Of a stretch of 64,000 bases of DNA, positions 11,654-46,715 are shown one piece after another. Positions within the stretch are counted from its first letter, which is position 1, and each line of letters starts with the position of its first letter. The notes under the pieces were generated by a model. That model was not told where the DNA came from and did no database searches. It saw only the letters and a list, made by a program, of their open reading frames with translations. The stretch comes from Gottschalkia acidurici 9a (lineage in GTDB: Bacteria > Bacillota > Clostridia > Tissierellales > Gottschalkiaceae): assembly GCF_000299355.1 (NCBI RefSeq), contig NC_018664.1, forward strand, positions 1,472,380 to 1,536,379. The letters run 5' to 3'. The position numbers and the translations under genes were made by a program.

Positions 11654-12460
11654 GTGAACAACCAAAAAATAAGATTATTAATAGCAGATGATAATAAAGA
11701 TTTTTGTAATATTCTAAATGAATATTTATCTACTCAAGAAGATGTAGAAGTAATAGGAGTGGCAAAAGATGGATTAGAAGCTTTAGAACTTATTTCTATA
11801 AAAAATCCAGATGTATTAATACTAGATATCATAATGCCACACTTAGATGGACTAGGAGTACTAGAAAGACTGCACTCTACGGAGTTAGAAAAGTTTCCTA
11901 AGATTATAATACTATCGGCAGTTGGACAAGATAAAATAACTCAAAGAGCTATAAATTTAGGTGCAGATTATTATGTAGTTAAACCTTTTGATTTTGAAAT
12001 ATTTATGAAAAGAATAAGACAAGTTGCAGGAACAGCACCAGCTATGATCGAGAAAAGAAAACAGGTTCAACCTGCTACTCAAGGACTTGTGGTAAGTCAA
12101 AAAAATAATTCTTTAGAGGCTAAAATAACTAATATAATTCATGAAATAGGAGTTCCAGCTCATATAAAAGGATATCTATACTTGAGAGAAGCTATTACTA
12201 TGGTTGTAGATAATATGGAATTATTAAGCGCAGTTACGAAAGAACTTTATCCTAATATAGCTAAGAAGTTTAACACAACTCCAAGTAGAGTAGAAAGAGC
12301 TATTAGACATGCTATAGAAGTAGCTTGGAGCAGAGGTAAGGTAGATACTATAAATAGTTTATTTGGTTATACAGTTCATACAGATAAAGGGAAACCTACA
12401 AACAGTGAGTTTGTAGCAATGGTAGCTGATAAATTAAGATTAGAACAGAAGATATCATAA
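11654..12460 (+). CDS. spo0A: Sporulation master regulator Spo0A
   Basis: 268 residues from a GTG preceded by AGGGGGG. The receiver domain has the acidic pair at Asp12-Asp13, the phospho-acceptor Asp58 in LILDIIMP and the conserved VKPFD lysine. The C-terminal DNA-binding domain contains [19 protein letters not shown] and ends [15 protein letters not shown]. Phosphorylated Spo0A binds 0A boxes and commits the cell to sporulation. A decayed mobile element follows immediately, separating it from steA. A Spo0A-C-like protein occurs again in the 35-46 kb element. Confidence 0.98.
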
Positions 12461-34443: not shown

Positions 34444-35230
34444 AGTTATAGTTATTGGAGGAGGATGGGCCGGATGTGCAGCTGCACTAAGTGCTAAAAA
34501 AGCTGGTGGTGATGTCACATTAATAGAAAAAACAGATCTTTTAGTAGGACTAGGTAATGTAGGCGGTATAATGAGAAATAATGGTAGATTTACTGCTACA
34601 GAAGAAAATATTTTACTGGGTGCTTCTGAACTATTCAATATAACAGATAAAGTAGCTAGACATAAAAATATAAAATTTCCGGGACATGATCATGCCACAC
34701 TATATGATGTTACTAAAGTAGAACCCGAGGTAAGAAGATTGTTAGAAGACAGAGGTATAAAAGTGCTTCTTGAAGCCAGAGCTATGGACGTTATAATGGA
34801 AGATAGTAAATTAAAAGGTATAGTATTAGCAGATGAAACTATAGTATATGGTGATGTATTTATAGAAACTACTGGATCCACGGGGCCAATAGGTAACTGT
34901 TTAAAATATGGAAATGGTTGCTCCATGTGCATATTAAGATGTCCTTCATATGGGCCAAGAGCAAGTATTAGTAGTTTAGCTGGAATTGAAGATATAGTTG
35001 GAAAAAGAGGAGATGAATGCTATGGTGCGTTTAGTGGATCTTGCAAGTTAAATAAAGATTCATTAAGTAAAGAGGTTATTGAGACCTTAAATAGGGAAGG
35101 CGTAGTGATACTAAAAATTCCAGATGAGGATATAAACTTAGAAAAACTTAATATTAAGGTTTGTCAGCAATATGCATTAAAGGAATTCGCACAGAATGTG
35201 ATCTTACTAGATACTGGTCATGCACTATGA
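34436..35230 (+). CDS. FAD-dependent oxidoreductase, 5' part (split by element)
   Basis: 264 codons as it stands. The N-terminal dinucleotide fold is VIVIGGGWAGCAAALSAKKA, followed by an FAD-family middle domain with ETTGSTGPIGNC and a CSMC segment. After LLDTGHA the frame runs into the element and stops at once (TGA 35,228-35,230). The C-terminal cap that closes FAD in this GidA/TrmFO-like family is missing here and is found 11 kb downstream at 46,214. Unless the element excises, this product is probably inactive. Confidence 0.9.
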   Translation: MTKVIVIGGGWAGCAAALSAKKAGGDVTLIEKTDLLVGLGNVGGIMRNNGRFTATEENILLGASELFNITDKVARHKNIKFPGHDHATLYDVTKVEPEVRRLLEDRGIKVLLEARAMDVIMEDSKLKGIVLADETIVYGDVFIETTGSTGPIGNCLKYGNGCSMCILRCPSYGPRASISSLAGIEDIVGKRGDECYGAFSGSCKLNKDSLSKEVIETLNREGVVILKIPDEDINLEKLNIKVCQQYALKEFAQNVILLDTGHAL

Positions 35231-35243
35231 ACAAAAGAACAAC
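35221..35243. other. attL of the intervening element
   Basis: The TGCAC core (35,221-35,225) is followed by the left 18-bp inverted-repeat arm (35,226-35,243). The recombinase stop codon (complement of CTA at 35,225-35,227) lies across core and arm. Confidence 0.85.
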
Positions 35244-36940
35244 TCTGAATTGAGTTGCTCCAGTTCATCAATTGTATACTCCCTTGTGGAAAAATCACCA
35301 TAATTGCTATCAGGATCCGTACTAGTACCTATAAATTTAATTCTTATTTTTTTCTTATCACCGTACCAATATATAGTGTCTATTAAAGCATTTATTAGTT
35401 GTTTTTGTTCTTCTCTAGAAAGTTTATCAATTAAAGCACATCTATTTAATATACTTGAAATAAAACTAATATCTAATTGTTCCATTTCTATATCTTTTGT
35501 TTCACTATCTATATTTTTTAATTTCTTGCTAAGGCCATTACATTCTTCTTTTAATGATTTTATTTTATCCATAAGTATCTCATCTATACTAGTATTTATA
35601 GAGAGCTTATTAACTAAATTATCTATCTGAAGTTTCTTTTCCTTCAAAGTATTTTCGATTGTGACTTTTTCTAATTCACTTTTACTATTAGTTAGGATTT
35701 CTTTATTTTTAGATTTCAATTTACATATGTATTCATTCTTTTCTTCGGCAAGTTTTTTAAGGCTAGCTATAACTAAATCATCTAACTCTGAAGCATTAGC
35801 ATTCTTATTATCACATAGCTTTTTTCGAGATTTTTTTTTAAGAGAGCATACATAGTAAAATACTTTTTCACCTGTAACCTTAGACACTCTTCCATGCTGA
35901 ACAGTCATATAACTGTCACAATAGCCACATCGTATTTTACCTGTTAAAAGTACATTGTGAGTTTTTCCGAGTCGTGGAAACTTATCTCTATTTATATCAA
36001 ACTGTTCTTGCACTTTTAACCATAGATCGGGTTCTAAAGCTCCCTTTATTTTGCTGACGGCCGCAAATCTTTTGCCAGTAGTGTTTACTAACTTAACACT
36101 TTTACCACCTCTACTAATATTTTCAGTTTTATTGTAGGTTAGTAGTGAGTGCATACCATCAGGCTCTCCATATATTTCCCAATTATTTTTCAATAGGTAG
36201 TCAATTACTTTATTACTAGATTTCACATATACAGGATTTTGAAGAATTATTTTTAATGTAGATTTCTCATATATTATACCATTTGTTGATTTTATATTGT
36301 TTTCATGCATATAGATTTCAAGTTTATGTAAACTACCTAACTCTAAGTATTTTTCATATAGGAACTTAACAAAATTCATTTCTTTTTCATCTATAATTAA
36401 AAGAGATTTTTCTTTTTTAGATCCTTTGTTATCTATATATACTACTTTTTCAGAATTAAATCCTAATGGTATTCTACCACCTGTCCATCTTCCATTCTTA
36501 GCAAGCTCAATCATATTGTCTTTTATGCGTTCAGCAATAGTCTCTCTTTCTAACTGTGCAAATACACTAGCGATATACATCATAGCTCTTCCCATAGGTG
36601 TAGAGGTATCGAACTGCTCCCTTATAGAAATAAAATCTATTTTAAGAGATTGCAATTTTTCAACTAGGACAGAAAAGTCAGCAACATTCCTACTTATTCT
36701 ATCTAATCTATAGCACACTAGAACATCAAACTCTTCATTTCTAGCGTCTTTCATTAATTTTTTAAACTGAGGTCTATCAGTATTCCCACCAGAGAATCCT
36801 TCATCTTCATAACATATAAATTTAAGATCTTCACCTAACTGTCTAGTAGCAAAGCTTTTACACATTTCAATTTGATTTTCAATACTATCTCCTTTTCCTG
36901 TAAACTTAGATTTACGGGAGTATATAGCAACTCTTTTCAA
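35225..36940 (-). CDS. Large serine site-specific recombinase (SpoIVCA-like)
   Basis: 571 residues from a TTG after AAAGGAGATG. The resolvase domain (about 1-150) has the nucleophile Ser8 in AIYSRKS, CYRLDRISRN and GRAMMYIASVFAQLERETIAERI read in parts. The recombinase domain (NGRWTGGRIPLGF), a zinc ribbon (CGYCDSY ... CSLKKKSRKKLC) and a C-terminal coiled coil follow, the layout of SpoIVCA, TnpX and phage integrases. It should integrate and excise the element at attL/attR. The length and motifs are intact, so the enzyme looks functional. Confidence 0.94.
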   Translation of the reverse strand: MKRVAIYSRKSKFTGKGDSIENQIEMCKSFATRQLGEDLKFICYEDEGFSGGNTDRPQFKKLMKDARNEEFDVLVCYRLDRISRNVADFSVLVEKLQSLKIDFISIREQFDTSTPMGRAMMYIASVFAQLERETIAERIKDNMIELAKNGRWTGGRIPLGFNSEKVVYIDNKGSKKEKSLLIIDEKEMNFVKFLYEKYLELGSLHKLEIYMHENNIKSTNGIIYEKSTLKIILQNPVYVKSSNKVIDYLLKNNWEIYGEPDGMHSLLTYNKTENISRGGKSVKLVNTTGKRFAAVSKIKGALEPDLWLKVQEQFDINRDKFPRLGKTHNVLLTGKIRCGYCDSYMTVQHGRVSKVTGEKVFYYVCSLKKKSRKKLCDNKNANASELDDLVIASLKKLAEEKNEYICKLKSKNKEILTNSKSELEKVTIENTLKEKKLQIDNLVNKLSINTSIDEILMDKIKSLKEECNGLSKKLKNIDSETKDIEMEQLDISFISSILNRCALIDKLSREEQKQLINALIDTIYWYGDKKKIRIKFIGTSTDPDSNYGDFSTREYTIDELEQLNSELFFCS

Positions 36941-37007
36941 ATTTTCATCTCCTTTGCTTTTTAGTGTTTAAATTAGTACATATTATAATATATATTTTTA
37001 ATTGCTG

Positions 37008-37037
37008 ACTTTATGAACTAATTACTTTATTATATTA
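37008..37037 (-). promoter_or_regulatory. Candidate sigma-E-type promoter of the recombinase
   Basis: Reading the - strand, TAATATA (37,037-37,031) matches 6 of 7 positions of the sigma-E -35 consensus KMATATT; 15 bp later CATAAAGT (37,015-37,008) matches CATACANT except for one base. It lies about 70 bp before the TTG. Mother-cell sigma-E drives spoIVCA in Bacillus. The region is very AT-rich, so chance matching is a real risk. Confidence 0.35.
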
Positions 37038-37107
37038 CTGTTTATAAATATATTAGAGTGTAAACTCTAATACCAACTGAAGTATGGGAAAATAACGTTT
37101 TTATATA

Positions 37108-37136
37108 TTGAAATATGTGCCTCGATATAGTATGGT
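37108..37136 (+). promoter_or_regulatory. Candidate sigma-A promoter before the Spo0E-like remnant
   Basis: TTGAAA (37,108-37,113) and TATGGT (37,131-37,136) are 17 bp apart and lie 35 bp before the start codon. Confidence 0.4.
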
Positions 37137-37170
37137 TAAGCGATAATGTTGATTAAATGAGGCGATAAAA

Positions 37171-37300
37171 ATGGATAAAGATAAATTAATTAGAAAAGAG
37201 CTAAGACTAATTATAGGAAGATTAGGATTGCTTAATAATAATTGTCTAAAATTAAGCACTTGATAATTTGATACTAGATTATGTATATCTTTATCTCTAA
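37171..37300 (+). pseudogene. Spo0E-like aspartyl-phosphate phosphatase, frameshifted
   Basis: After TGAGGCG and ATG the frame reads IRKELRLIIGRLGLLNNN then CLKLS and stops at 37,263. In a shifted frame the sequence continues ALDNLILDYVYLYL to TAA at 37,300. Together they match the Spo0E pattern (two short helices with an S-x-x-x-D signature, here LS..ALD). A 5-bp loss between AAGC repeats would explain the break. Spo0E proteins dephosphorylate Spo0A~P. Family call is by pattern only. Confidence 0.55.
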
Positions 37301-37709
37301 TTTGATTAACTTCACTATATAATTTCTATCTATCAATTATAATATATTCAGATTTGATCCATATAAATGATAAGTTAAAGTCTGAGCAGATCTGATGCTA
37401 TTAGAAATTATATGACTTTTTTATAAATTATTGTTGGTAACTATAAAAGTTATCATTAATAGTTTATTCTCTAGGTGTTGAACTATAGTTATTAATATTA
37501 GCATCTATGTCTTTACATTTTGCGATATCAGAAATAGAAGTTAGTACTAATATAAATATTAAAACAGTTGATACAAATTTTCTTTTTATCTACAATCATT
37601 ATAAAAACAATAAGCTCAAATATTTTCTAAAAAGCATGTATCTATCGCAAAATTTGACATTTATTTAAATGTGTAAAATTAGCAATCAATCAAATGATTT
37701 TACAATTCC
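37301..37709. other. Element intergenic region
   Basis: About 400 bp with no supported + strand gene. On the - strand between 37,599 and 37,464 a broken frame resembles a small exported peptide (VSTVLIFILVLTSISDIA then a short polar tail), but the only ATG is out of frame with it. Confidence 0.4.
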
Positions 37710-37751
37710 TGTCGGAAGATGTCGACAAAAGCCCTACTTCTCTAATATAAC
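37710..37751 (+). promoter_or_regulatory. Promoter with two tandem 0A-box-like sites before the agr module
   Basis: TGTCGGA (37,710-37,716) and TGTCGAC (37,720-37,726) each match 6 of 7 bases of the Spo0A box TGNCGAA and start exactly 10 bp apart, one helical turn. The second overlaps a -35-like TCGACA (37,722-37,727), followed 18 bp later by TATAAC (37,746-37,751). This is the layout of promoters that Spo0A activates. The agr sensor gene starts 38 bp downstream. Confidence 0.55.
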
Positions 37752-37788
37752 AATAAGTGTTAAGATTAATATAAGAGGTGATGTATTT

Positions 37789-38643
37789 GTGGATATTATG
37801 ACTCTTAAGGAAATATTAATAGTAGGTGTACCAGAAGTATTTATTGTAATTTTAATAGGATTAGTACTTGGATTTAGTAATGATTTTTTTAAACAGATAA
37901 GACTATGGGGTTTAAAACTTTTCATATCAGTAATGTTTATTTTAATAGGTATATATTTTATTAGGAGTAGAGCAACAAGTATTCAAAGTATAAGTATATT
38001 TTGTCTTATTACATATATAGCAAGTTATAAGTTTATATTCGAGATGAACACTAGAAAAAGTATAATAATTGGAAGTATAGTTATGTTTCTAATACTTTCA
38101 TCAGAAATAGTTACATTTCCAGTTTTAAAGTATATAGAAAATGGAGTCTATTTTAAGAATAGAATTAATGTAACTATTATAACTAGAGTTATTCAGATTA
38201 TTATTTTAGTATTGTTTTATAAAGCTAATATGCACATAAGTAATATAAATATGATCTCGTGTAAATGGAGAGATCTTAAGATTAAAGAAAAAATAACTAT
38301 TGTATTTATAATATCTTTATTAGTATTATGCGTAATATTTAATGCTAGCTATTCAGACTTATATGTAAAGTTAAATATTAGTAATTTAAAACTTGAAGAT
38401 AGCTATATAAGATTAAACATGTTTATGTATTTTATGGAAAATATACTTTTTATATTCATAGTATTGTATCTTCTTAACAGAACAAAAAACTATTATATTT
38501 TTGAGGAATTTTTATTACAGGGAGATGAAGCAATCCTTCGTGACTTATTAGAATTAGCAGATGAGGAGAGAATTAGGGAGTATAAAAAAATCTGTGATCA
38601 ATATCTTGAAGAATTAGATATACCTAATAGGGTGACTGAATGA
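37789..38643 (+). CDS. AgrC-like membrane sensor without kinase domain
   Basis: 284 residues from a GTG after GAGGTG. Six or seven membrane segments fill residues 9-240, followed by a 45-residue acidic cytoplasmic tail (LLELADEERIREYKK). No H-box or ATP-binding domain is present. It overlaps agrD by 4 bp (ATGA). By layout it resembles the pheromone-sensing half of AgrC; whether it senses the peptide, exports it or gives immunity is unknown. Confidence 0.6.
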   Translation: MDIMTLKEILIVGVPEVFIVILIGLVLGFSNDFFKQIRLWGLKLFISVMFILIGIYFIRSRATSIQSISIFCLITYIASYKFIFEMNTRKSIIIGSIVMFLILSSEIVTFPVLKYIENGVYFKNRINVTIITRVIQIIILVLFYKANMHISNINMISCKWRDLKIKEKITIVFIISLLVLCVIFNASYSDLYVKLNISNLKLEDSYIRLNMFMYFMENILFIFIVLYLLNRTKNYYIFEEFLLQGDEAILRDLLELADEERIREYKKICDQYLEELDIPNRVTE

Positions 38644-38780
38644 ATAAAAAGTTTGCTCTTAAACTAATAGAAACTACTATGAGGTTAATAGTTTCTTTAT
38701 TTTCAATGTTAGCCGTACAAGCTCAAACATGCTCTGCAGCATTTTGGAAAACTAAAATGTCAAAAGCACTAGAAAAATAA
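38640..38780 (+). CDS. agrD: AgrD-like cyclic autoinducer peptide precursor
   Basis: 46 residues, too short for most gene finders. An amphipathic N-terminal helix (residues 3-26) leads to AQTCSAAFW and then the charged tail KTKMSKALEK. The cysteine at position 31, five residues from an aromatic pair, fits a thiolactone ring of the CSAAF type, and the tail is the part AgrB recognises. It overlaps the sensor gene and is followed by a hairpin. agrB lies two genes later. Confidence 0.8.
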   Translation: MNKKFALKLIETTMRLIVSLFSMLAVQAQTCSAAFWKTKMSKALEK

Positions 38781-38812
38781 GAACAGGAGCTTCCTCCTGT
38801 TCTTATTTAAAG
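38779..38812 (+). terminator. Hairpin between agrD and the Spo0A-C-like gene
   Basis: AAGAACAGGAG pairs with CTCCTGTTCTT around a 4-nt loop and is followed by ATTTAA. It could favour high agrD output over the downstream genes. Confidence 0.75.
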
Positions 38813-38825
38813 AGGAGGGAGTTAG

Positions 38826-39113
38826 TTGAAAATAACTGAATTACTTAATGAGCTTGGAGTAGATAACTTCAGGGATAGAGCATTTCTGTATAAAATAATA
38901 TCTATATTTAAAGGAAATAATCAGTGTGATAATTTCGTTCAAACTATTATAAATGAATTTGAAAGAGACTATTCTACTATAAGAAAGAGAATGAAGAGAA
39001 TTATAGAAAGTAATGAAAATAATATATCAAATGTACTAGATATACAAAAGGATAAATTAACAAGTAAGGCTTTTGTACAAAAGCTAATTAAAAAAACAGG
39101 AGCAAAGAAATGA
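38826..39113 (+). CDS. Spo0A C-terminal-domain-like DNA-binding protein
   Basis: 95 residues from a TTG after AGAGGAGGG. It aligns by eye along the whole DNA-binding domain of the chromosomal Spo0A in this window: ITELLNELGV against [25 protein letters not shown] against [15 protein letters not shown], and KLTSKAFVQKLIKK against [14 protein letters not shown]. There is no receiver domain, so it cannot be phosphorylated like Spo0A. It overlaps agrB by 4 bp. It may act at 0A boxes, including those before this operon. Confidence 0.7.
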   Translation: MKITELLNELGVDNFRDRAFLYKIISIFKGNNQCDNFVQTIINEFERDYSTIRKRMKRIIESNENNISNVLDIQKDKLTSKAFVQKLIKKTGAKK

Positions 39114-39700
39114 ATGGAATTATTAAACTATTTGCATATAAAATATATAAACATACCGATAAATATAACAAAGATAAACATGATAAAGACGAATGGAGAG
39201 AAGTGTTAGAATATATAGTTTATAGAATCATGACATTTACTCTACTTATAACAATGCTAGTTATATTATCAAATCTATTTACAATAGATAATGATATATA
39301 TGTATTTACTATTAGCTTTTTAATTTTAAAAAGAAAGTTTGGTGGAATGCATCTAGAAAGTGAAGTGGGATGTTTTATATTAAGTCTAATATTTCCACTC
39401 ATCGTATATTTCTTATTTAAAAATACTCATACCCAAAGCGAAATTCTTATAATTATGAGCATTACTTCTGCTTTCATGCTGGCTAAAATAGGAACGGTAG
39501 ATAATGTAGTGAGAAAGCTAAAGAAAGAACATAAATTAAAGTTACAAAAACAGGGGATTATAGTCCTAATAATAATGTTATCAATAAATTTATATACAAA
39601 TAATCAGTTTATATCTTTAGCGCTAATTTTTACAGTAATAAACTGCTTAATTGGTAAAATTCAATATATTAAAAAAATTGCAGGACATGAGAAAAAATAA
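39110..39700 (+). CDS. agrB: AgrB-like peptide-processing membrane protease
   Basis: 196 residues with four to six membrane segments and the AgrB catalytic block KRKFGGMHLESEVGCFILSL, which holds the conserved His and Cys. AgrB removes the AgrD tail and forms the thiolactone. It is translationally coupled to the Spo0A-C-like gene. An intact protease, precursor and sensor-like protein make the module plausibly functional. Confidence 0.88.
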   Translation: MNGIIKLFAYKIYKHTDKYNKDKHDKDEWREVLEYIVYRIMTFTLLITMLVILSNLFTIDNDIYVFTISFLILKRKFGGMHLESEVGCFILSLIFPLIVYFLFKNTHTQSEILIIMSITSAFMLAKIGTVDNVVRKLKKEHKLKLQKQGIIVLIIMLSINLYTNNQFISLALIFTVINCLIGKIQYIKKIAGHEKK

Positions 39701-39774
39701 TATAATAAAGCTCACAAACAAATATTCCTTTTATGCTGTAGACTTATTAGTATAAGACAAGGAGGAATATAGTA

Positions 39775-39834
39775 ATGATAAAATATATACTTTGGTATGG
39801 TAATTATATAGATAAATATGGCTGCGATATATAA
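39775..39834 (+). CDS. 19-residue peptide with strong ribosome site
   Basis: AAGGAGGAATATAGTA precedes an ATG opening a 19-codon frame rich in Tyr and Ile (MIKYILWYGNYIDKYGCDI). It lies directly before a large palindrome. It may be a tiny peptide or the cut-off start of a lost gene. Confidence 0.35.
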   Translation: MIKYILWYGNYIDKYGCDI

Positions 39835-39850
39835 GCTTAGATTATAAAGC

Positions 39851-39910
39851 TAGTTAAACAAAAGAGAGGTAAAATCTATTAATAGATTTTACCTCTCTTT
39901 TGTTTAACTA
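39851..39910. terminator. Perfect 60-bp palindrome
   Basis: Bases 39,851-39,880 and 39,881-39,910 are exact reverse complements with no spacer; the arms contain AAACAAAAGAGAGGTAAAAT and its complement. On RNA it would form a long hairpin ending the agr transcript from either side, though no separate U-tract follows. Confidence 0.75.
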
Positions 39911-40131
39911 AGGATATGTTGAATTTTGTATTTTTTAAAAGAATTCTCAAAGCGTTTATATATTTAGTAATTTTACATATTACACTGTAATAATTTAAAT
40001 ACAGATAAATTTTATCATTTCTTAAATGAAGTCATTTAGATTTATTTTAATAGATTCTAAACTAGATATTTCTATGTTCCTAATCTTTTAGTTATCTATA
40101 TATTAGTGTTAGAATATTGGAAAGTAACACT
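39911..40131. other. AT-rich spacer inside the element
   Basis: No gene or RNA recognised. Confidence 0.4.
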
Positions 40132-40248
40132 ATGGAAAAAGTTAAGATAAAACTATCCTATAAATATAAGCTCATAAAAAGAAGTAAGTGCAGGCTAAGC
40201 TATAAGGTAGTGAAGAAGTATATTTACTTCAAATTAGTTAATTATTAA
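40132..40248 (+). CDS. Possible 38-residue very basic peptide
   Basis: ATG after TTGGAAAG opens a frame with 11 Lys and 2 Arg among 38 residues (MEKVKIKLSYKYKLIKRSKC then RLSYKVVKKYIYFKLVNY). It has no recognised family; it could be a phage-type small protein or chance. Confidence 0.25.
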   Translation: MEKVKIKLSYKYKLIKRSKCRLSYKVVKKYIYFKLVNY

Positions 40249-40323
40249 CTTAGCTTTAAACTAGCTAATAGACTGTCATAGGACATTCAGTGGTACACAT
40301 AGCATTTAGTAAGGAGGTTGAAA

Positions 40324-40485
40324 ATGTATAAAGTTGAACTGATTTTGCCTAAAGATATTCAACCATTAAAAGAAAGAATGACTGATGTACTCACAGATAT
40401 ATGGATAAAGAAGTTAGGTACAAAAGAGAAAGTAGATCATCTTATAAAAGAATTAGAGAAAGAAGATATAGAAGAATTTCTTTAA
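40324..40485 (+). CDS. Small element protein, 53 residues
   Basis: A near-perfect AAGGAGGTTGAAA ribosome site precedes the ATG. The product is soluble and helical, with a charged C-terminus (VDHLIKELEKEDIEEFL). No family recognised. It may be the first gene of the phage-type cluster that continues at 41.2 kb. Confidence 0.55.
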   Translation: MYKVELILPKDIQPLKERMTDVLTDIWIKKLGTKEKVDHLIKELEKEDIEEFL

Positions 40486-41262
40486 AAAAGACGTAAGATA
40501 AACACAACATTAGACTTTAAAAATTATTTGTATATAGTTGCTTTTTACAGTATTAAAGGATTAATCTTAAATTTTAAGAAAAGGACAAAATATAACGAAA
40601 GGTAGTGCATTAATAAACCTTCGCTATAAAAATAGAATTAAATAACGTGTGCTGCTATAGAATATACAATTAGATCTTATGATTTACACTAAAATACGGT
40701 TGAAAATAATAATAACATAATAAGAAGATCTTAAATGTTTAATATAATTATTTAACTATTAGAATCGAGGAATAATACTATGAGACTCTACAGTTTATAA
40801 GATAGAGCTATAGATATAATAGTTATCAGTATATATAATGACAAACACAAGAAACAATAGAACTAAAAGTGAAGATTATAGCTTTATTGGCCAATAAATT
40901 AAAAAGAAAAAGGTTCTTCAGATCTGACACTCTGAAGAACTTAAACTTGATAGCTTAAAAATATGTTTAATATAAGCGTTATACTACATAGAAATGAGCT
41001 TTATGAAGAGAAATAATTCAATAATTTAAATCTCTTAGAACTATTATAAAAGTTATCAATATCTCCTTTAAGAACAAAGTGTAAAGAAAAAATACAAAAG
41101 AATATACATGCTTTAAAGAATCATTATTTAAATCTTTAAAAAATAACGATAGCATAAAAATTTTAAAAAAATAGTGATTGGATAAAGGATACATAAAAGA
41201 AGAAAAAGAGATTTTAAATAGATCACAAAAAACTAGAGAACAAGTTATAGCTTTAGGAATGA
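40486..41262. other. Decayed DNA inside the element
   Basis: Nothing intact. Short frames such as KEEKEILNRSQKTREQVIAL (41,178-41,312, TTG start) look like a phage-gene remnant. Confidence 0.4.
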
Positions 41263-41451
41263 ATGACGAAAATGATTATGAAAATTATAAGAGATGTTAT
41301 AAATACTCATAAACCTTTAGGTCTGTTTTGGGCAAAAGATACCAAGGCTAATTTATATATAGCAGTAAATAATAATATAGGGAAAGCTTATAAACAAAAG
41401 TTCAAATCACTAGAAGAATGCATAAATTGGTTAATGAAGGAGGAAGTATAG
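41263..41451 (+). CDS. Small phage-type protein, 62 residues
   Basis: The frame ends KSLEECINWLMKEEV and has TLYIAV-like strands (KANLYIAVNNNIGKAYKQKF), a pattern of short phage proteins of unknown role. The ATG at 41,263 has a weak AGGA close by; 41,272 is an alternative start. Three more small genes follow closely in the same direction. Confidence 0.5.
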   Translation: MTKMIMKIIRDVINTHKPLGLFWAKDTKANLYIAVNNNIGKAYKQKFKSLEECINWLMKEEV

Positions 41452-41453
41452 TG

Positions 41454-41696
41454 ATGTATACAGAGTCAGTAGAATCACTAAAAAAAGTAGAGTTAGCCAT
41501 AAATACTTTAAATGATTTAGAAGGTGATGAAGCAATTAGTGGTGATGAGATTTTAAATATAATAGAGCCTTCAACTGAACGCTTACATGAACTTAGAATA
41601 AGATTAAAATTAGATATTAATAAGTGTCAAGAGGACAGGTATTCACTAAAAGAAGATAAAGCAGATATCTTCAGAAAGATAGCAAAAGGATATTAA
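41454..41696 (+). CDS. Small phage-type helical protein
   Basis: 80 residues from the ATG at 41,454, preceded by GAAGGAGGAAG; a GTG at 41,451 is also in frame. The product is mostly helical and acidic (VELAINTLNDLEGDEAISGD). It lies upstream of a Rad52-like gene, where phages keep recombination accessory genes. No family recognised. Confidence 0.55.
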   Translation: MYTESVESLKKVELAINTLNDLEGDEAISGDEILNIIEPSTERLHELRIRLKLDINKCQEDRYSLKEDKADIFRKIAKGY

Positions 41697-41698
41697 AC

Positions 41699-41902
41699 AT
41701 GAAAAAGCTTATAAAGGAATGGAAATACAGACTTAAAAATATAGATGAAAACTTACAGATACACATAAAAGCAATTGAGAATAAAGAATATACAAAAGAC
41801 ATGAGAGACTATGCAAGAAGTAGAGTGATTAGTTTAACAGAATATAAGAATCTTATAGAAAGTACAATAGAAGCACTTGAGAAAGTGAAAGAGGAGGTAT
41901 AG
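41699..41902 (+). CDS. Small phage-type coiled-coil protein
   Basis: 67 residues, helical throughout (WKYRLKNIDENLQIHIKAIE), starting 2 bp after the previous stop and ending just before the Rad52-like gene. The previous gene's last codons (AAAGGATATTAA) provide the ribosome site. No family recognised. Confidence 0.5.
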   Translation: MKKLIKEWKYRLKNIDENLQIHIKAIENKEYTKDMRDYARSRVISLTEYKNLIESTIEALEKVKEEV

Positions 41903-41905
41903 AAA

Positions 41906-42586
41906 GTGAATATCAGGGCATTAAGGTCTGATGAAATAGAATGTAGAGTACAAACAGTAAAGCAAAATGGATGTTCTTTGCTTCTGTTTAAAGATGCAAG
42001 ATGTGATATGAAAATACTAGATGAAACCTTTGGAATAATGGGATGGCAAAGAAAGCATGAGCTTATAAATAATAACCTGTTTTGTACTATATCAGTTTGG
42101 GATAAAGATAAACAAATGTGGATTAGTAAACAAGATGTTGGAGTTGAAAGCTATGCAGAAAAAGAAAAAGGGCAAGCATCAGATAGCTTTAAAAGAGCAT
42201 GTTTTAACTTAGGTATAGGTAGAGAACTTTATACAGCTCCTTTTATATGGATTAGTTTAAATAGTAATGAGATAATTGAGAATAAAGGAAAGTATAATGT
42301 CAAAACAAAGTTTAGAGTTAAAGAAATAAGTTATAACGAAAACAAAGAGATAGATAGACTAGTTATAGTTGATAACCAAGGAACAGTAAGATATGAGACA
42401 GGAAAGCATATAAAAGCAGACAATATTAATCGCAATACGAACAGTAAAAGCAACACTGAAAAAGATAAAGAAACAGACTATAAGTGCTTAGAATGTGGAG
42501 TAGATATTATACAAGCAGTAAATGCATATAGCAATAATAAATTTGGACGAGCATTGTGTAGAGATTGTCAAAATAAGCAAAGGTAG
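41906..42586 (+). CDS. Rad52/DdrA-like single-strand annealing protein (phage type)
   Basis: 226 residues from a GTG after GAGGAGGT. The core MGWQRKHELINNNLFCTISV, QDVGVESYAEKEKGQASDSF and KRACFNLGIGRELY is the pattern of the phage Rad52/DdrA annealing family. A C-terminal zinc ribbon (CLECGVDI ... ALCRDCQ) follows. Such proteins pair complementary strands during phage replication and recombination. It points to a phage origin for the element. Confidence 0.8.
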   Translation: MNIRALRSDEIECRVQTVKQNGCSLLLFKDARCDMKILDETFGIMGWQRKHELINNNLFCTISVWDKDKQMWISKQDVGVESYAEKEKGQASDSFKRACFNLGIGRELYTAPFIWISLNSNEIIENKGKYNVKTKFRVKEISYNENKEIDRLVIVDNQGTVRYETGKHIKADNINRNTNSKSNTEKDKETDYKCLECGVDIIQAVNAYSNNKFGRALCRDCQNKQR

Positions 42587-42594
42587 ATGAGATT

Positions 42595-42702
42595 ATGAGG
42601 AGATACAGCTATGAAGAATATCTACGAATATGTTATTGGAATGACGAAGAACCAATGACTGAGAAAGAGTATGCAGAGTTTTTAGAAACTAATTATGACT
42701 AA
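42595..42702 (+). CDS. 35-residue small phage-type protein
   Basis: A short acidic frame (MRRYSYEEYLRICYWNDEEP) starting 8 bp after the Rad52-like gene with GATGAGAT upstream and ending before a terminator. Likely a real small phage gene, but the evidence is context only. Confidence 0.4.
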   Translation: MRRYSYEEYLRICYWNDEEPMTEKEYAEFLETNYD

Positions 42703-42710
42703 GTAAATAT

Positions 42711-42742
42711 AGGGGTCTCTACAATAAGAGATCCCTAATAAA
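42711..42742 (+). terminator. Terminator of the phage-gene cluster
   Basis: AGGGGTCTCT pairs with AGAGATCCCT (one G.U) and is followed by AATAAAAAG; it ends the 41.2-42.7 kb cluster. Confidence 0.65.
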
Positions 42743-43319
42743 AAGATATATAAATATCATGCTTGTTATAATTGTTCTATTACTAAGAATAATGAAAGTC
42801 TGTGCTGAAAATCATGTTATGGGAAACCCAAAATACAAAAAGAAAATAATATTGATTTTGAAAATATTTCAATCAATACAAAGAACTTTTAAATTATATG
42901 ATATTACAAATAAACATTATATCTTATAACGAATCTGGCTTGAATAAAGAATACTCCCTAGCTTCAACGCTTTAAGTTTTACATTCACTTATAGTGATAG
43001 AAAACAAAGATTTTCTAAAAAAATATAATAATGAAAATACCTCATTGATAAAGAGAAAACTTAAGCAGTAAAGACATAAACAGTCGCTAAAAACAAGATT
43101 TTTCAAGAAATGGAGGTAAAAGAGAAAGAGTTTAGAAAAAATCATAAAAGACTTAAGTCTATATTGGGATTTCATGAAGATTTAACTAAAGCTAGAGTAA
43201 TTTTAAGAACAAGTTCATATGTGAAAATTTGAAATAGTAAATATTTAGGATGGTATCAGAGAAATAAAGGAATATTATCTTTTACATAGAAATTTATATG
43301 TAAAGGGGAGTGATAGTAG
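42743..43319. other. Decayed element DNA
   Basis: No intact gene. A 40-codon frame at 43,110-43,232 (MEVKEKEFRKNHKRLKSILG) lacks clear support. Confidence 0.4.
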
Positions 43320-43549
43320 ATGGATAAAGATAAAATTATAAATCATATAGGTGAAAATTTTAAAAAGGATGCCCTATGTGTAATGGCATGGAATGGGATA
43401 TATGCAATAACTTATCAAGCAGCTATCCTTTAAGCAGTAAAAACGGTAGTTATGAGTGGGAACAAAAAGGAAAGGTAAATCCTGTAGTAGAAGTTATATG
43501 CTTACATTGTGGATTTGTAGCGGGAATATCTACTTTAGTAATGAGATAG
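43320..43549 (+). pseudogene. Zinc-finger phage protein, frameshifted
   Basis: ATG after AGGGGAGTG opens MDKDKIINHIGENFKKDA. A second frame then carries CPMCNGMEWDICNN and, near its end, CLHCGFVAGISTLVMR up to TAG at 43,549. Joined at about 43,370 they give a 75-residue protein with a CxxC...CxxC zinc ribbon, so a single frameshift has probably killed it. Confidence 0.6.
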
Positions 43550-44337
43550 AGACTAAGAGCCTACTTGTTGTTCTTTTAATCTTAAAAAATAATTAAAATA
43601 TTTGAGTAAATATAGAATCATAAATAATTGAACAAATTATAAAGTTAAATTAAATATCTATGTTAATTGCTGAAATGGCGGAAATATAATAAAAAATAAA
43701 TAATTTTAAACATAATAACAAAGAAAAAGATAAGTGGCTGATAGCTTAGAGACAACAAAATCACTTTTAATAGACCTTTAAAGGGCTAGTATATGACAAT
43801 AGAGAGGATCAATAACTTTACATTAAGGCTAGAAAACGGAAATATAAAAAATTATTTTAAAGATGTCCAAAAGCACCATAGACAAAATATTGACATGCTA
43901 GCAAGTTATATTCGCAACCGAAAGAGAAGATAGAAATTAAAGGAGAAATATATCTGAAAAGGTTTTGGAGAGGTAATCCGGATTATAAATCAAGAGATCT
44001 TGTATGTGAAATATTACAAAATGATAGGAAATCTACCGAGAAGTTAAAAAGGTTAACTTAATTTAAAAAAGGGTCTAAGCAGCAAAGGCTCTTTTTTATG
44101 TAATAAGGCAATTTTAATATGTATACGAGCATAACGTAAGTGTTATACAATGATAAAAATGATTATTCTTTTTACTCCACAAAAATAATATTTGTTAAAA
44201 TGATATTTAGAGAGACTTAATTTCTTTATATGGCTTATATGCTATATATAATATCTTTATCTTAATATCCTAAGATCTACTTATTGTTGAATTTCAATAT
44301 TTACAAATACTACATACGACTTCCAGTAAATGTTTGA
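43550..44337. other. Decayed element DNA
   Basis: Fragments only: a 46-codon basic frame at 43,793-43,933 (MTIERINNFTLRLENGNIKN) and a frame ending LVCEILQNDRKSTEKLKRLT at 44,061. Neither has a convincing ribosome site. Confidence 0.4.
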
Positions 44338-44520
44338 TATAATGAATTAAGATAAATATTATAATTTTACTATCTATGAAGTTTAATTATATAAAAGTAG
44401 ATGAATTCTTATGAGAATAAAACGAATTAATTACTCGGTGCAGTTTATATAAATGATAGTATATTGTACCGAGAAAAGAAAAATATTACTATCAGCGTAA
44501 CTGCATCGTCCTTTTTAGTA
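44315..44520 (+). promoter_or_regulatory. Promoter and attenuator-like leader of the methyltransferase gene
   Basis: TATAAT (44,338-44,343) has a weak -35, TACGAC, 17 bp upstream. The leader can fold two ways. CTCGGT (44,434) with ACCGAG (44,468) forms a short hairpin. Alternatively 44,436-44,445 pairs with 44,499-44,508 over ten positions, enclosing GATAGT/ACTATC, and is followed by CCTTTTT, a terminator. The two share bases, so only one can form. A 13-codon frame (MRIKRINYSVQFI, 44,411-44,452) crosses the switching arm. Confidence 0.5.
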
Positions 44521-44548
44521 TCCAGATAATATTAGGGAGGAAAGGGTT

Positions 44549-45307
44549 ATGAATCGTGATAGACTTAGAAGAATATGGAAGAAGGAAGAGAATAAGGTTT
44601 TTAAAGGATGGGATTTTTCTTATTTAGACAGCAGATGGTATGATGAAAAGCTACCTTGGAACTATAAAAAAATATTAAAAGAGTATTTAAAATCAGAATA
44701 TAAAATACTTGATATGGGAACAGGTGGAGGAGAATTCTTATTATCTTTAAATCATCCATATAATAAAACTTCAGTTACAGAGATGTGGGAACTTAATATA
44801 AAAGTATGTAAGGAAAAACTAGCTCCGCTAGGTATTGGTGTGTACCAAATATACCAAGATAAAATCTTACCTTTTAAAGATAATTCTTTTGACATGATTA
44901 TAAATAGACATGAATCGTATGATGTAAAAGAAATAAAGAGAATATTAAGGCCTAGAGGTATATTTATTACTCAACAAGTTGGTGGGAGAAATAATGAAAT
45001 TCTTTCGAATCGGTTAATAAAAGATTTTAACCCGCAATTTAAGAACATTAGCTTAGATAATGCTATATACGAATTAAAAGAAAACTTCTTTAACATCATA
45101 TATAAGAATGAGTATTTTCCATACTTACATTTTTATGATGTTGGTTCTATTGTATACTTTGCAAAAATCATAGAGTGGGAGTTTCCAAACTTTTCGGTAG
45201 ATAGTTGCTTTAATGAACTATATGACTTATATAAAGAACTAAAACAAAAGTCATATGTAGAAAGTTTTGAACACAGATTTATTATAGTATGTAAAAATAT
45301 AAAATAG
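44549..45307 (+). CDS. Class I SAM-dependent methyltransferase
   Basis: 252 residues with motif I LDMGTGGGEFLLSL, LPFKDNSFDMIINRHESYD and EIKRILRPRGIFITQQVGG, the usual SAM fold of small-molecule or macromolecule methyltransferases. It has its own promoter, a regulated-looking leader, a GGGAGGAAAGG ribosome site and a terminator, so it is a free-standing cargo gene. The leader layout recalls antibiotic-inducible resistance genes, but the substrate is not evident. Confidence 0.85.
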   Translation: MNRDRLRRIWKKEENKVFKGWDFSYLDSRWYDEKLPWNYKKILKEYLKSEYKILDMGTGGGEFLLSLNHPYNKTSVTEMWELNIKVCKEKLAPLGIGVYQIYQDKILPFKDNSFDMIINRHESYDVKEIKRILRPRGIFITQQVGGRNNEILSNRLIKDFNPQFKNISLDNAIYELKENFFNIIYKNEYFPYLHFYDVGSIVYFAKIIEWEFPNFSVDSCFNELYDLYKELKQKSYVESFEHRFIIVCKNIK

Positions 45308-45319
45308 CTACTTATATAA

Positions 45320-45360
45320 TAAGGGGTTTGATATCTAACATTCAAACCCTTTAAATATTT
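45320..45360 (+). terminator. Terminator after the methyltransferase
   Basis: AAGGGGTTTGA pairs with TCAAACCCTTT; AAATATTTT follows. Confidence 0.8.
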
Positions 45361-46194
45361 TATAATTTTATGTTAGATTTAAAAGTATATTAGTGTATTG
45401 ACAGAAGAAGTAGATAATACTATTACTGTTATAAATATTTCAATATCTTAATAAATAAATAAAAAACTAAAATATGAAAGTAAACAATAAATAAAAACAT
45501 ATATAAATATGGGAGCTTATATAGAGTAAATGGATCAATAAGTATTGCCTGTAGAAAAGGATTAAAAAGATTTAAAGATAGAATTGAGGCATTTACATAT
45601 AATGGATCGAAAGGTAATAATAATGCAATGTAAAGGTGAGGAAAAAAGAGAGTCTGTAATTCCAAAATGCACTATTTTAATTGGACAGTATTGAGAAAAA
45701 ATATGAGCATATTATTTAGGATATTACATGATCAAATAGTATTAGAACTTTAGATAGTTAAATGTTAATGTATCAGACGAAATCTTGAAAATATTTTAAA
45801 TATGTCATATCAGTCTGTATTAAAATCTTTAAGTGAAAGGGACAAAGAGAAACTATGAAACAAATAGCAATAGTTTAATAAATAGATATCATTTTAATTA
45901 GTAAATGTAATGACTAAACTAATAACTCTAAGTTATTCTAGGGAAAATAATATGCTGTTAAATTATGTTGTGAGAATAAAATTTTAAAATATTGTGGATA
46001 GTATTTTTTGTTTGTAACTTATTAATAAAATTTGTTATAGGAATAAGTTCTACTTATGTTCCATTTAATAATTCTTTAATAGTTGTATTACTCATTTTTC
46101 TTAACTTGCAAAGTATAGTAGATATATTATACCTAGATAGTGTAGAATATAATGTGGAGATGATATTTTCTATATTGATAAATGTGTTTTTAAT
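45361..46194. other. Decayed right end of the element
   Basis: Broken frames such as GLKRFKDRIEAFTYNGSKGN and NLENILNMSYQSVLKSLSER (HTH-like) with stops around them. A hydrophobic TTG frame at 45,992 runs into attR but has no ribosome site. Confidence 0.45.
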
Positions 46195-46218
46195 GTTGTT
46201 CTTTTGTTCATACTGCAC
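46195..46218. other. attR of the intervening element
   Basis: The right 18-bp inverted-repeat arm (46,195-46,212), one C, then the TGCAC core (46,214-46,218). Host sequence ATGCTAAG resumes at 46,219. Confidence 0.85.
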
Positions 46219-46715
46219 ATGCTAAGTTAATGTCTTCATTTTATCCACTTGAAAGATTGAGAAAAATAAGAGGACTAGAAAGTGCTAGATATGAAGATCC
46301 TTACTCAGGTGGGAAAGCTAACTCAGTTAGATATCTTTCCATAGCTCCAAGAGATAATAAAATGAAAGTTGCTGGATTAGATAACTTACTGTGTGGTGGA
46401 GAAAAAGCAGGTTTATTTGTAGGTCATACTGAAGCAATAACTACAGGAAGTTTAGCAGGGCACAATAGTGTAAGATTAAGTTTAGGAATGCCTCTATTAG
46501 AGCTTCCAAGGAATCTTGCAGTAGGAGATATTATTGCTTATGCTAATGAGAGCATAGGTACGAAAGATGGACTTAAGAAAAGATTTACATTTGCGGGTTC
46601 AGAATTTTTTGAAAGAATGAAGGTTACAGGATTATATACTACAAACATAGAGGAAATTAGGAAGAAAATAGATGGATTAAATTTACTTGGAATATATGAA
46701 GAAAAATTAGTATAA
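46214..46715 (+). CDS. FAD-dependent oxidoreductase, 3' part (split by element)
   Basis: The frame carries the missing C-terminal FAD cap: LRKIRGLESARYEDPYSGGK, GLDNLLCGGEKAGLFVGHTE and ITTGSLAGHNSVRL. Joined to 34,436-35,220 it gives one 428-residue protein. An internal ATG at 46,230 (MSSFYPLERL) has no ribosome site, so this part is probably not translated alone. Downstream it is followed by rluB. Confidence 0.9.

What the first reader, a model, noticed from the sequence alone, without database searches (positions are those of the whole stretch)
37710..37751. Two 0A-box-like sites, 10 bp apart, overlap the -35 of the agr operon
TGTCGGA and TGTCGAC (each 6/7 to TGNCGAA) start exactly one helical turn apart, and the second overlaps a -35-like TCGACA, the usual arrangement for Spo0A-activated promoters. 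Such GC-containing words are rare in this AT-rich DNA. Either host Spo0A~P or the element's own Spo0A-C-like protein could act here, which would close a regulatory loop.
Basis: partly seen in the sequence, partly recalled or inferred. Interest (0 to 1): 0.68.

Follow-up and report, generated by a model that had tools for sequence, protein, structure and literature searches.

The report
Spo0A-type boxes before an agr operon
In a spore-forming bacterium, a piece of mobile DNA carries a cell-to-cell signalling operon whose start region holds an unusually rare pair of sites resembling those read by the master switch of sporulation, so the signal may be timed by sporulation, but binding has not been shown.

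Summary
TGTCGGA (37710) and TGTCGAC (37720) start 10 bp apart, 79 and 69 bp before the GTG start of an agr-type operon. TGTCGN5TGTCG occurs twice in the 3.1 Mb genome, once in 479 kb around the window, and in none of 60 simulations of that length. Both boxes keep G2, C4 and G5, the bases Spo0A contacts, and lie where bound C. difficile boxes lie. The host's Spo0A has the DNA-reading helix of the solved Spo0A. The promoter itself is weak evidence: the minus strand scores as well, and an upstream promoter would put the boxes at its start site. Relatives give partial support: exact TGTCGAA lies 92-97 bp upstream in 3 of 4 distant operons with a small gene after agrD (one of the 3 in a terminator-like hairpin), while two paralogous operons in this genome lack both gene and boxes. 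The "Spo0A-C-like" protein is only suggestively Spo0A-related: no Pfam match, reading helix not conserved. Best reading: a Spo0A-type site, more likely read by host Spo0A~P than by the element's protein. Binding and direction are untested.

The parts
37710..37716 (+). box 1, TGTCGGA (5/6 fixed bases of TGNCGAA; keeps G2, C4, G5), starts 79 bp before the GTG start
37720..37727 (.). box 2, TGTCGAC inside the palindrome TGTCGACA; readable on either strand; starts 69 bp before the GTG start
37722..37751 (+). candidate promoter of the operon: TCGACA (37722-37727), 18 bp, TATAAC (37746-37751), 10/12
   Evidence: consensus match only
37697..37725 (-). equally good divergent candidate promoter: TCGACA, 17 bp, TAAAAT, 10/12, pointing towards the recombinase gene about 750 bp away
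   Evidence: consensus match only
37679..37706 (+). alternative upstream promoter TTAGCA, 16 bp, TACAAT, 9/12; its start (about 37713) would fall on box 1
   Evidence: consensus match only
37789..38643 (+). receptor-like membrane protein, 284 aa from GTG 37789, no kinase domain found; two paralogs in this genome (47-48% identical)
38640..38780 (+). AgrD-like peptide precursor, 46 aa
   Evidence: similar to the peptide of the paralogous operon; no family match
38826..39113 (+). 95-aa protein X, possibly related to the Spo0A DNA-binding domain
   Evidence: for; against:
39110..39700 (+). AgrB, 196 aa
   Evidence: PF04647, E 2.5e-20
35225..36940 (-). large serine recombinase of the element
35224..46222 (.). 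the element (10,999 bp between CATGC cores) that interrupts an FAD-dependent oxidoreductase gene
11654..12460 (+). host Spo0A, full length, the likeliest reader of the boxes

Best explanation
The two boxes form a Spo0A-type operator that ties the element's agr operon (receptor, AgrD, small protein X, AgrB) to the host's sporulation switch. Most likely host Spo0A~P binds both boxes side by side and helps RNA polymerase start at TCGACA-N18-TATAAC, so that the peptide signal is made on entry into stationary phase or sporulation. X, if it is a Spo0A-type domain, could compete or co-bind. Shown: the sequence, its rarity, its position, the intact host Spo0A, the gene order. Inferred: binding, activation, timing, and any role of X.
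For: Tandem TGTCG at 10 bp: 2 places genome-wide, 1 in 479 kb against 0 in 60 simulations. The genome also holds one exact tandem of the same geometry, TGACGAAAAATGTCGAA, 58 and 48 bp before the ATG of a transporter-like gene. Both boxes keep G2, C4 and G5, the bases that C. difficile and B. subtilis Spo0A need, and start at -79/-69, against -67 to -82 for four C. difficile boxes in fragments bound by Spo0A (PMC3485338, passages). The host's Spo0A DNA-binding domain matches the solved Spo0A domain and its reading helix is identical. In distant relatives with a small gene after agrD, exact TGTCGAA lies at -92 (L047), -94 (L048) and -97 (L049) and is missing within 150 bp in L054, where the expected rate is about 0.003-0.010 per 150 bp per strand. 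In L049 a full-length Spo0A paralog (TIGR02875 E 9.8e-78) is the gene directly upstream of the receptor.
Against: Neither box is exact. In L049 the TGTCGAA is one arm of a strong terminator-like hairpin (-19.9 kcal/mol), as it is in loci of another family, so these are not clean evidence. The stretch upstream of the host's spo0A shows no such box, and its spoIIGA promoter shows only weak boxes in the reverse direction (read by eye), so the host's own rules are not calibrated here. Conservation of this very site cannot be tested: close relatives of the operon are two paralogs without boxes and a remnant without promoter. In B. subtilis the boxes at spo0A act mostly as repressing sites (PMC12090719, passages), so activation is a guess.
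Confidence: 0.48

Rival explanations
1. The boxes are the element's own operator: protein X (95 aa) binds them and sets its own operon's expression, with the kinase-less receptor controlling X directly rather than through phosphorylation.
For: Boxes go with the small gene: exact or near boxes in 4 of 5 receptor operons with a small gene after agrD (window, L047, L048, L049; not L054), none in 8 receptor loci without it (two in L014, L053, L070, L071, L072, L073, L075), leaving aside 4 loci (L050, L069, L076, L077) whose box lies in a hairpin. No other DNA-binding regulator was recognised in the element. X aligns collinearly with Spo0A's DNA-binding domain, 0 of 500 shuffles as good.
Against: X matches no Spo0A_C model; hhalign E 0.03 for a single comparison; 4 of 2000 shuffles beat it by local profile score; the small proteins of L047 and L054 show no Spo0A signal. 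Residues aligned with Spo0A's reading helix differ. The association was chosen after the fact and fades if the four hairpin loci are counted (4 of 5 against 4 of 12) or if L049 is dropped.
Confidence: 0.22
2. A dyad or palindrome operator (TGTCG-N8-CGACA, or TGTCGACA) for an unrelated dimeric repressor of host or element, possibly shared by divergent promoters of the agr operon and the recombinase.
For: TGTCGACA is a perfect palindrome, and TGTCG/CGACA is the only such dyad with loop up to 20 in 479 kb; equal promoter-like matches point both ways.
Against: No candidate repressor recognised in the element; dyad and tandem are the same bases, so this adds no independent signal; the recombinase start is about 750 bp away.
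Confidence: 0.13
3. Chance: two GC-containing words happen to lie near a promoter-like stretch in AT-rich DNA.
For: With the loose definition the window is expected to hold about one such pair; promoter-like matches are at chance level.
Against: With the shared bases the chance is small, and position and contact bases fit.
Confidence: 0.17

Closest known systems
Spo0A-controlled promoters with 0A boxes (B. subtilis abrB, spoIIG; C. difficile spo0A, sigH, lplA, ssuA)
   Same: TGTCG core with G2, C4, G5; boxes 67-82 bp before the start codon in C. difficile; tandem at 10 bp, as recalled for abrB
   Different: neither box is exact; box 2 is palindromic; no binding data; the target is a peptide-signalling operon on a mobile element
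agr quorum sensing (AgrB, AgrD, AgrC, AgrA)
   Same: AgrB by Pfam, AgrD-like precursor and membrane receptor in one operon
   Different: no kinase domain found in the receptor and no AgrA/LytTR gene in the operon; a small protein X lies between agrD and agrB
agr genes of C. difficile phage phiCDHM1 (PMC3901668, abstract and outline seen)
   Same: agr genes carried by a mobile element
   Different: the phage carries a histidine kinase AgrC; X, receptor and AgrB have no match in 50,697 phage records
C. difficile agrB1D1, activated by RgaR (PMC11210211, passages seen)
   Same: agr signal linked to sporulation
   Different: there the direct activator is the response regulator RgaR; here the site looks like a Spo0A box

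Membership tests
Spo0A-bound promoter | exact core TGTCGAA | tested here: not met
   TGTCGGA and TGTCGAC, one mismatch each; many real targets also have degenerate boxes (PMC3485338 section 22)
Spo0A-bound promoter | contacted bases G2, C4, G5 present | tested here: met
   both boxes
Spo0A-bound promoter | position close to the start codon as in C. difficile targets | tested here: met
   -79 and -69
Spo0A-bound promoter | host Spo0A with conserved DNA-reading helix | tested here: met
Spo0A-bound promoter | Spo0A binding and Spo0A-dependent expression | not testable with these tools
   needs footprint and promoter fusion
Spo0A_C (PF08769), for protein X | match above the family cut-off | tested here: not met
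   no match
Spo0A_C (PF08769), for protein X | collinear similarity over the whole domain | tested here: inconclusive
   0 of 500 shuffles as good, but hhalign E 0.03 for one comparison, 4 of 2000 shuffles better locally, model pLDDT 52.8
Spo0A_C (PF08769), for protein X | residues of the reading helix conserved | tested here: not met
   host [12 protein letters not shown] aligns with STIRKRMKRIIE; which residues contact DNA is recalled
agr system | AgrB | tested here: met
   PF04647 E 2.5e-20
agr system | AgrD | tested here: inconclusive
   no family match for the window's peptide; right place and 47% identical to the paralogous operon's peptide; the relative in L049 matches TIGR04223
agr system | AgrC histidine kinase and AgrA regulator in the operon | tested here: not met
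   receptor has no kinase family match; no LytTR match among the operon's proteins

The most novel reading that the evidence does not exclude
A peptide-signalling cassette without kinase or AgrA, in which a miniature Spo0A-type protein encoded beside agrD is the output regulator and shares its boxes with the host's Spo0A, so that a mobile element listens to, and feeds into, the sporulation decision; distant relatives (L047, L048, and L049 beside a full Spo0A paralog) would be further members.
Probability: 0.17. Interest if true: 0.82.

Novelty: new variant of a known kind. Interest (0 to 1): 0.5.

Why it matters
If true, Spo0A, the sporulation master regulator, directly times a quorum-sensing operon carried by an element that interrupts a chromosomal gene and whose clean removal would restore it. 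It also points to a little-described agr layout, kinase-less receptor plus small protein, found in a few distant clostridial genomes, whose output is unknown and now has a concrete candidate site to test.

Tried and rejected
Relatives of protein X: in the order, 1 of 249 genomes, the window's own, with the intact gene and a 29-residue remnant; none in genome contigs, viral contigs, phages or plasmids. Ten of 391 genomes of a class sample hit at E up to 0.01 (the own genome among them); the nine others (E 0.001-0.01, partial, mostly inside long frames) were not pursued. Receptor and AgrB: none in phages; AgrB none in viral contigs; receptor none in genome contigs and viral contigs; the L048 receptor none in plasmids, the L049 receptor none in phages. 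The single-sequence fold of X is poor (pLDDT 52.8) and its Foldseek matches mean nothing (best E 4).

I first took the exact TGTCGAA of L050, L069, L076 and L077 as conserved boxes, then dropped them: they lie in a terminator-like hairpin in L069 and L076 (-18.9, -24.0 kcal/mol) and in a weaker fold in L050 (-12.1); L077 was not folded but its sequence is close to that of L069. L049 has the same weakness and is kept but marked. L054 has TGTCGAA only at -392 and is counted as a miss. Weak receptor hits L006, L007, L008 and L051 were left out of the promoter table.

Rejected: the site as a terminator (hairpin only -6.0 kcal/mol, no T run). The second genome-wide TGTCGN5TGTCG (L045) lies between genes, about 215 bp before a transporter gene on the other strand, with no clear role. 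Literature: searches listed no paper whose title or abstract start describes a Spo0A-type protein inside an agr operon or 0A boxes before a kinase-less agr receptor; I saw listings, plus passages of PMC3485338 (and its section 22), PMC12090719, PMC2530871, PMC4168254 and PMC11210211, and the abstract and outline of PMC3901668. Subscription journals are mostly missing from the library.

Full report
What is there. The window lies at C2:1472380-1536379 of a 3,108,248-bp genome in 2 contigs; the sizes fit Gottschalkia acidurici by recall only. At 37710 and 37720 stand TGTCGGA and TGTCGAC. The next gene on the plus strand starts at GTG 37789, chosen because it aligns with the ATG of two paralogs and follows AGAGGTGAT; the frame is open from 37669. 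The operon is receptor (37789-38643), AgrD-like peptide (38640-38780), 95-aa protein X (38826-39113), AgrB (39110-39700; PF04647 E 2.5e-20).

The setting. The operon sits in an element with a large serine recombinase. The element splits an FAD-dependent oxidoreductase gene; joining the flanks at the 5-bp core CATGC restores one open frame of 426 residues, so the element is 10,999 bp. The host's Spo0A is in the same window (11654-12460).

Is it chance? It depends on the definition, and I give both. Allowing one mismatch to TGNCGAA in each box, a pair at spacing 10 is expected about once per window, and 479 kb hold 3. Demanding the shared bases, TGTCGN5TGTCG is found twice in the whole genome, and in 479 kb TGTCGN5TGTCG and TGNCGN5TGNCG are each found once against 0 and 0.07 in simulations. 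In 479 kb only two direct TGTCG pairs lie within 40 bp of each other, this one and one at spacing 30, and only one inverted pair, again this one. So the repeat is real; that it is a pair of 0A boxes is an inference.

Does it fit Spo0A? Passages of PMC3485338 report that Spo0A contacts G2, C4 and G5 of TGTCGAA, that single changes there lower binding about tenfold, and that C. difficile fragments bound by Spo0A have boxes at -75, -78, -67 and -82 from the start codon. Here both boxes keep the three bases and start at -79 and -69. The host's Spo0A domain aligns with the solved domain (1lq1, E 2.6e-56) with [18 protein letters not shown] identical. A perfect tandem with the same spacing, TGACGAAAAATGTCGAA, stands once in this genome, 58 and 48 bp before the ATG of a transporter-like gene, which suggests the host uses this geometry. 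Against easy confidence: the stretch upstream of the host's spo0A shows no such box, and the spoIIGA promoter shows only weak boxes reading the other way, TTCGACT, AGTGACA, TTGAACA (by eye).

Promoter and direction. TCGACA-N18-TATAAC (10/12) places box 2 on the -35, the arrangement recalled for Spo0A-activated promoters. But TGTCGACA is a palindrome, and the minus strand gives TCGACA-N17-TAAAAT (10/12), while TTAGCA-N16-TACAAT upstream (9/12) would put the boxes at the start site, a repressing position. Promoter-like matches in 37000-40400 are not above chance (24 against 28.7 expected). In B. subtilis the boxes at spo0A itself are mostly repressing (PMC12090719, passages). So activation is my guess, not a result.

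Relatives. Two paralogous loci in this genome (receptors 47-48% identical) have receptor, AgrD-like gene and AgrB, intact in one and decayed in the other, but neither X nor a TGTCG box upstream. A remnant about 31 kb away keeps the end of agrD and the start of X but no promoter. A class sample of 391 genomes gave 6 with a receptor match and a second of 392 gave 11. I examined the upstream 200 bp of 17 receptor loci. Five have a small gene after agrD (window, L047, L048, L049, L054; AgrB follows it in the window, L048 and L049, and was not seen in the fetched stretches of L047 and L054). Of the four besides the window, exact TGTCGAA within 150 bp is present in three: L047 (-92), L048 (-94), L049 (-97); not in L054. 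Eight loci without such a small gene have none (two in L014, L053, L070, L071, L072, L073, L075; L053 has instead a 261-aa gene). Four loci of another family (L050, L069, L076, L077) have it, within hairpins of -12 to -24 kcal/mol where folded, so I set them aside; L049's box is also one arm of a hairpin (-19.9). With the background of 0.003-0.010 per 150 bp per strand, two or three exact boxes in four loci is unlikely by chance (my estimate from those rates: about 1e-4 leaving L049 out), but the criterion was fixed after seeing the loci, and the loci are few. L049 adds a full-length Spo0A paralog (TIGR02875 E 9.8e-78, PF08769 E 3.9e-28) directly upstream of the receptor, which links this receptor family to Spo0A-type regulators by gene neighbourhood.

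Is X a Spo0A-type protein? End-to-end alignment to Spo0A domains scores 5.3 standard deviations above shuffles with 30 domains (0 of 1000 as good) and 4.5 with every third of them (0 of 500); 1 of 438 real fragments does as well. The small protein of L049 behaves alike (z 5.2, 7 of 438), that of L048 less (z 2.9), those of L047 and L054 not at all. Profile tests are negative: no PF08769 match, hhalign E 0.03-0.25 for single comparisons, and 4 of 2000 shuffles beat it locally. Pfam prefers, also below cut-off, a nucleotidyltransferase-binding family (E 0.0055). The reading helix differs (STIRKRMKRIIE against [12 protein letters not shown]). I therefore treat X as a candidate only, and the claim that X reads exactly these boxes as the weaker of the two readings.

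Verdict. Host Spo0A~P is the best-supported reader (0.48), X next (0.22); an unrelated dimeric repressor (0.13) and chance (0.17) remain. Direction, promoter and loop are open. The unexpected part is the wider pattern: a kinase-less agr receptor family whose operons sometimes carry a small gene and Spo0A-type boxes together.

Noticed in passing
35224-46222: The element interrupts an FAD-dependent oxidoreductase gene; joining the flanks at CATGC restores a 426-residue open frame, as skin-like elements do.
   Followed up: partly
L014 8040-9640 and 10186-11304: Two neighbouring paralogous agr loci elsewhere in the genome without protein X; the second is decayed (broken agrD, only the end of agrB left).
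   Followed up: partly
L002 1381-1587: Remnant of an agrD end and the first 29 codons of X outside the element, about 31 kb from the intact gene.
   Followed up: partly
L049 623-1366: Full-length Spo0A paralog directly upstream of a receptor-AgrD-small gene-AgrB operon in a distant genome, with TTCGACA about 70 bp before its start.
   Followed up: partly
39777-39836: A short frame after agrB, MIKYILWYGNYIDKYGCDI, with a good ribosome-binding site (read): possible small peptide.
   Followed up: no
L050, L069, L076, L077, about 116 bp before the receptor start: TGTCGAA shared by four related loci but lying in or near a terminator-like hairpin; a trap for box searches.
   Followed up: yes
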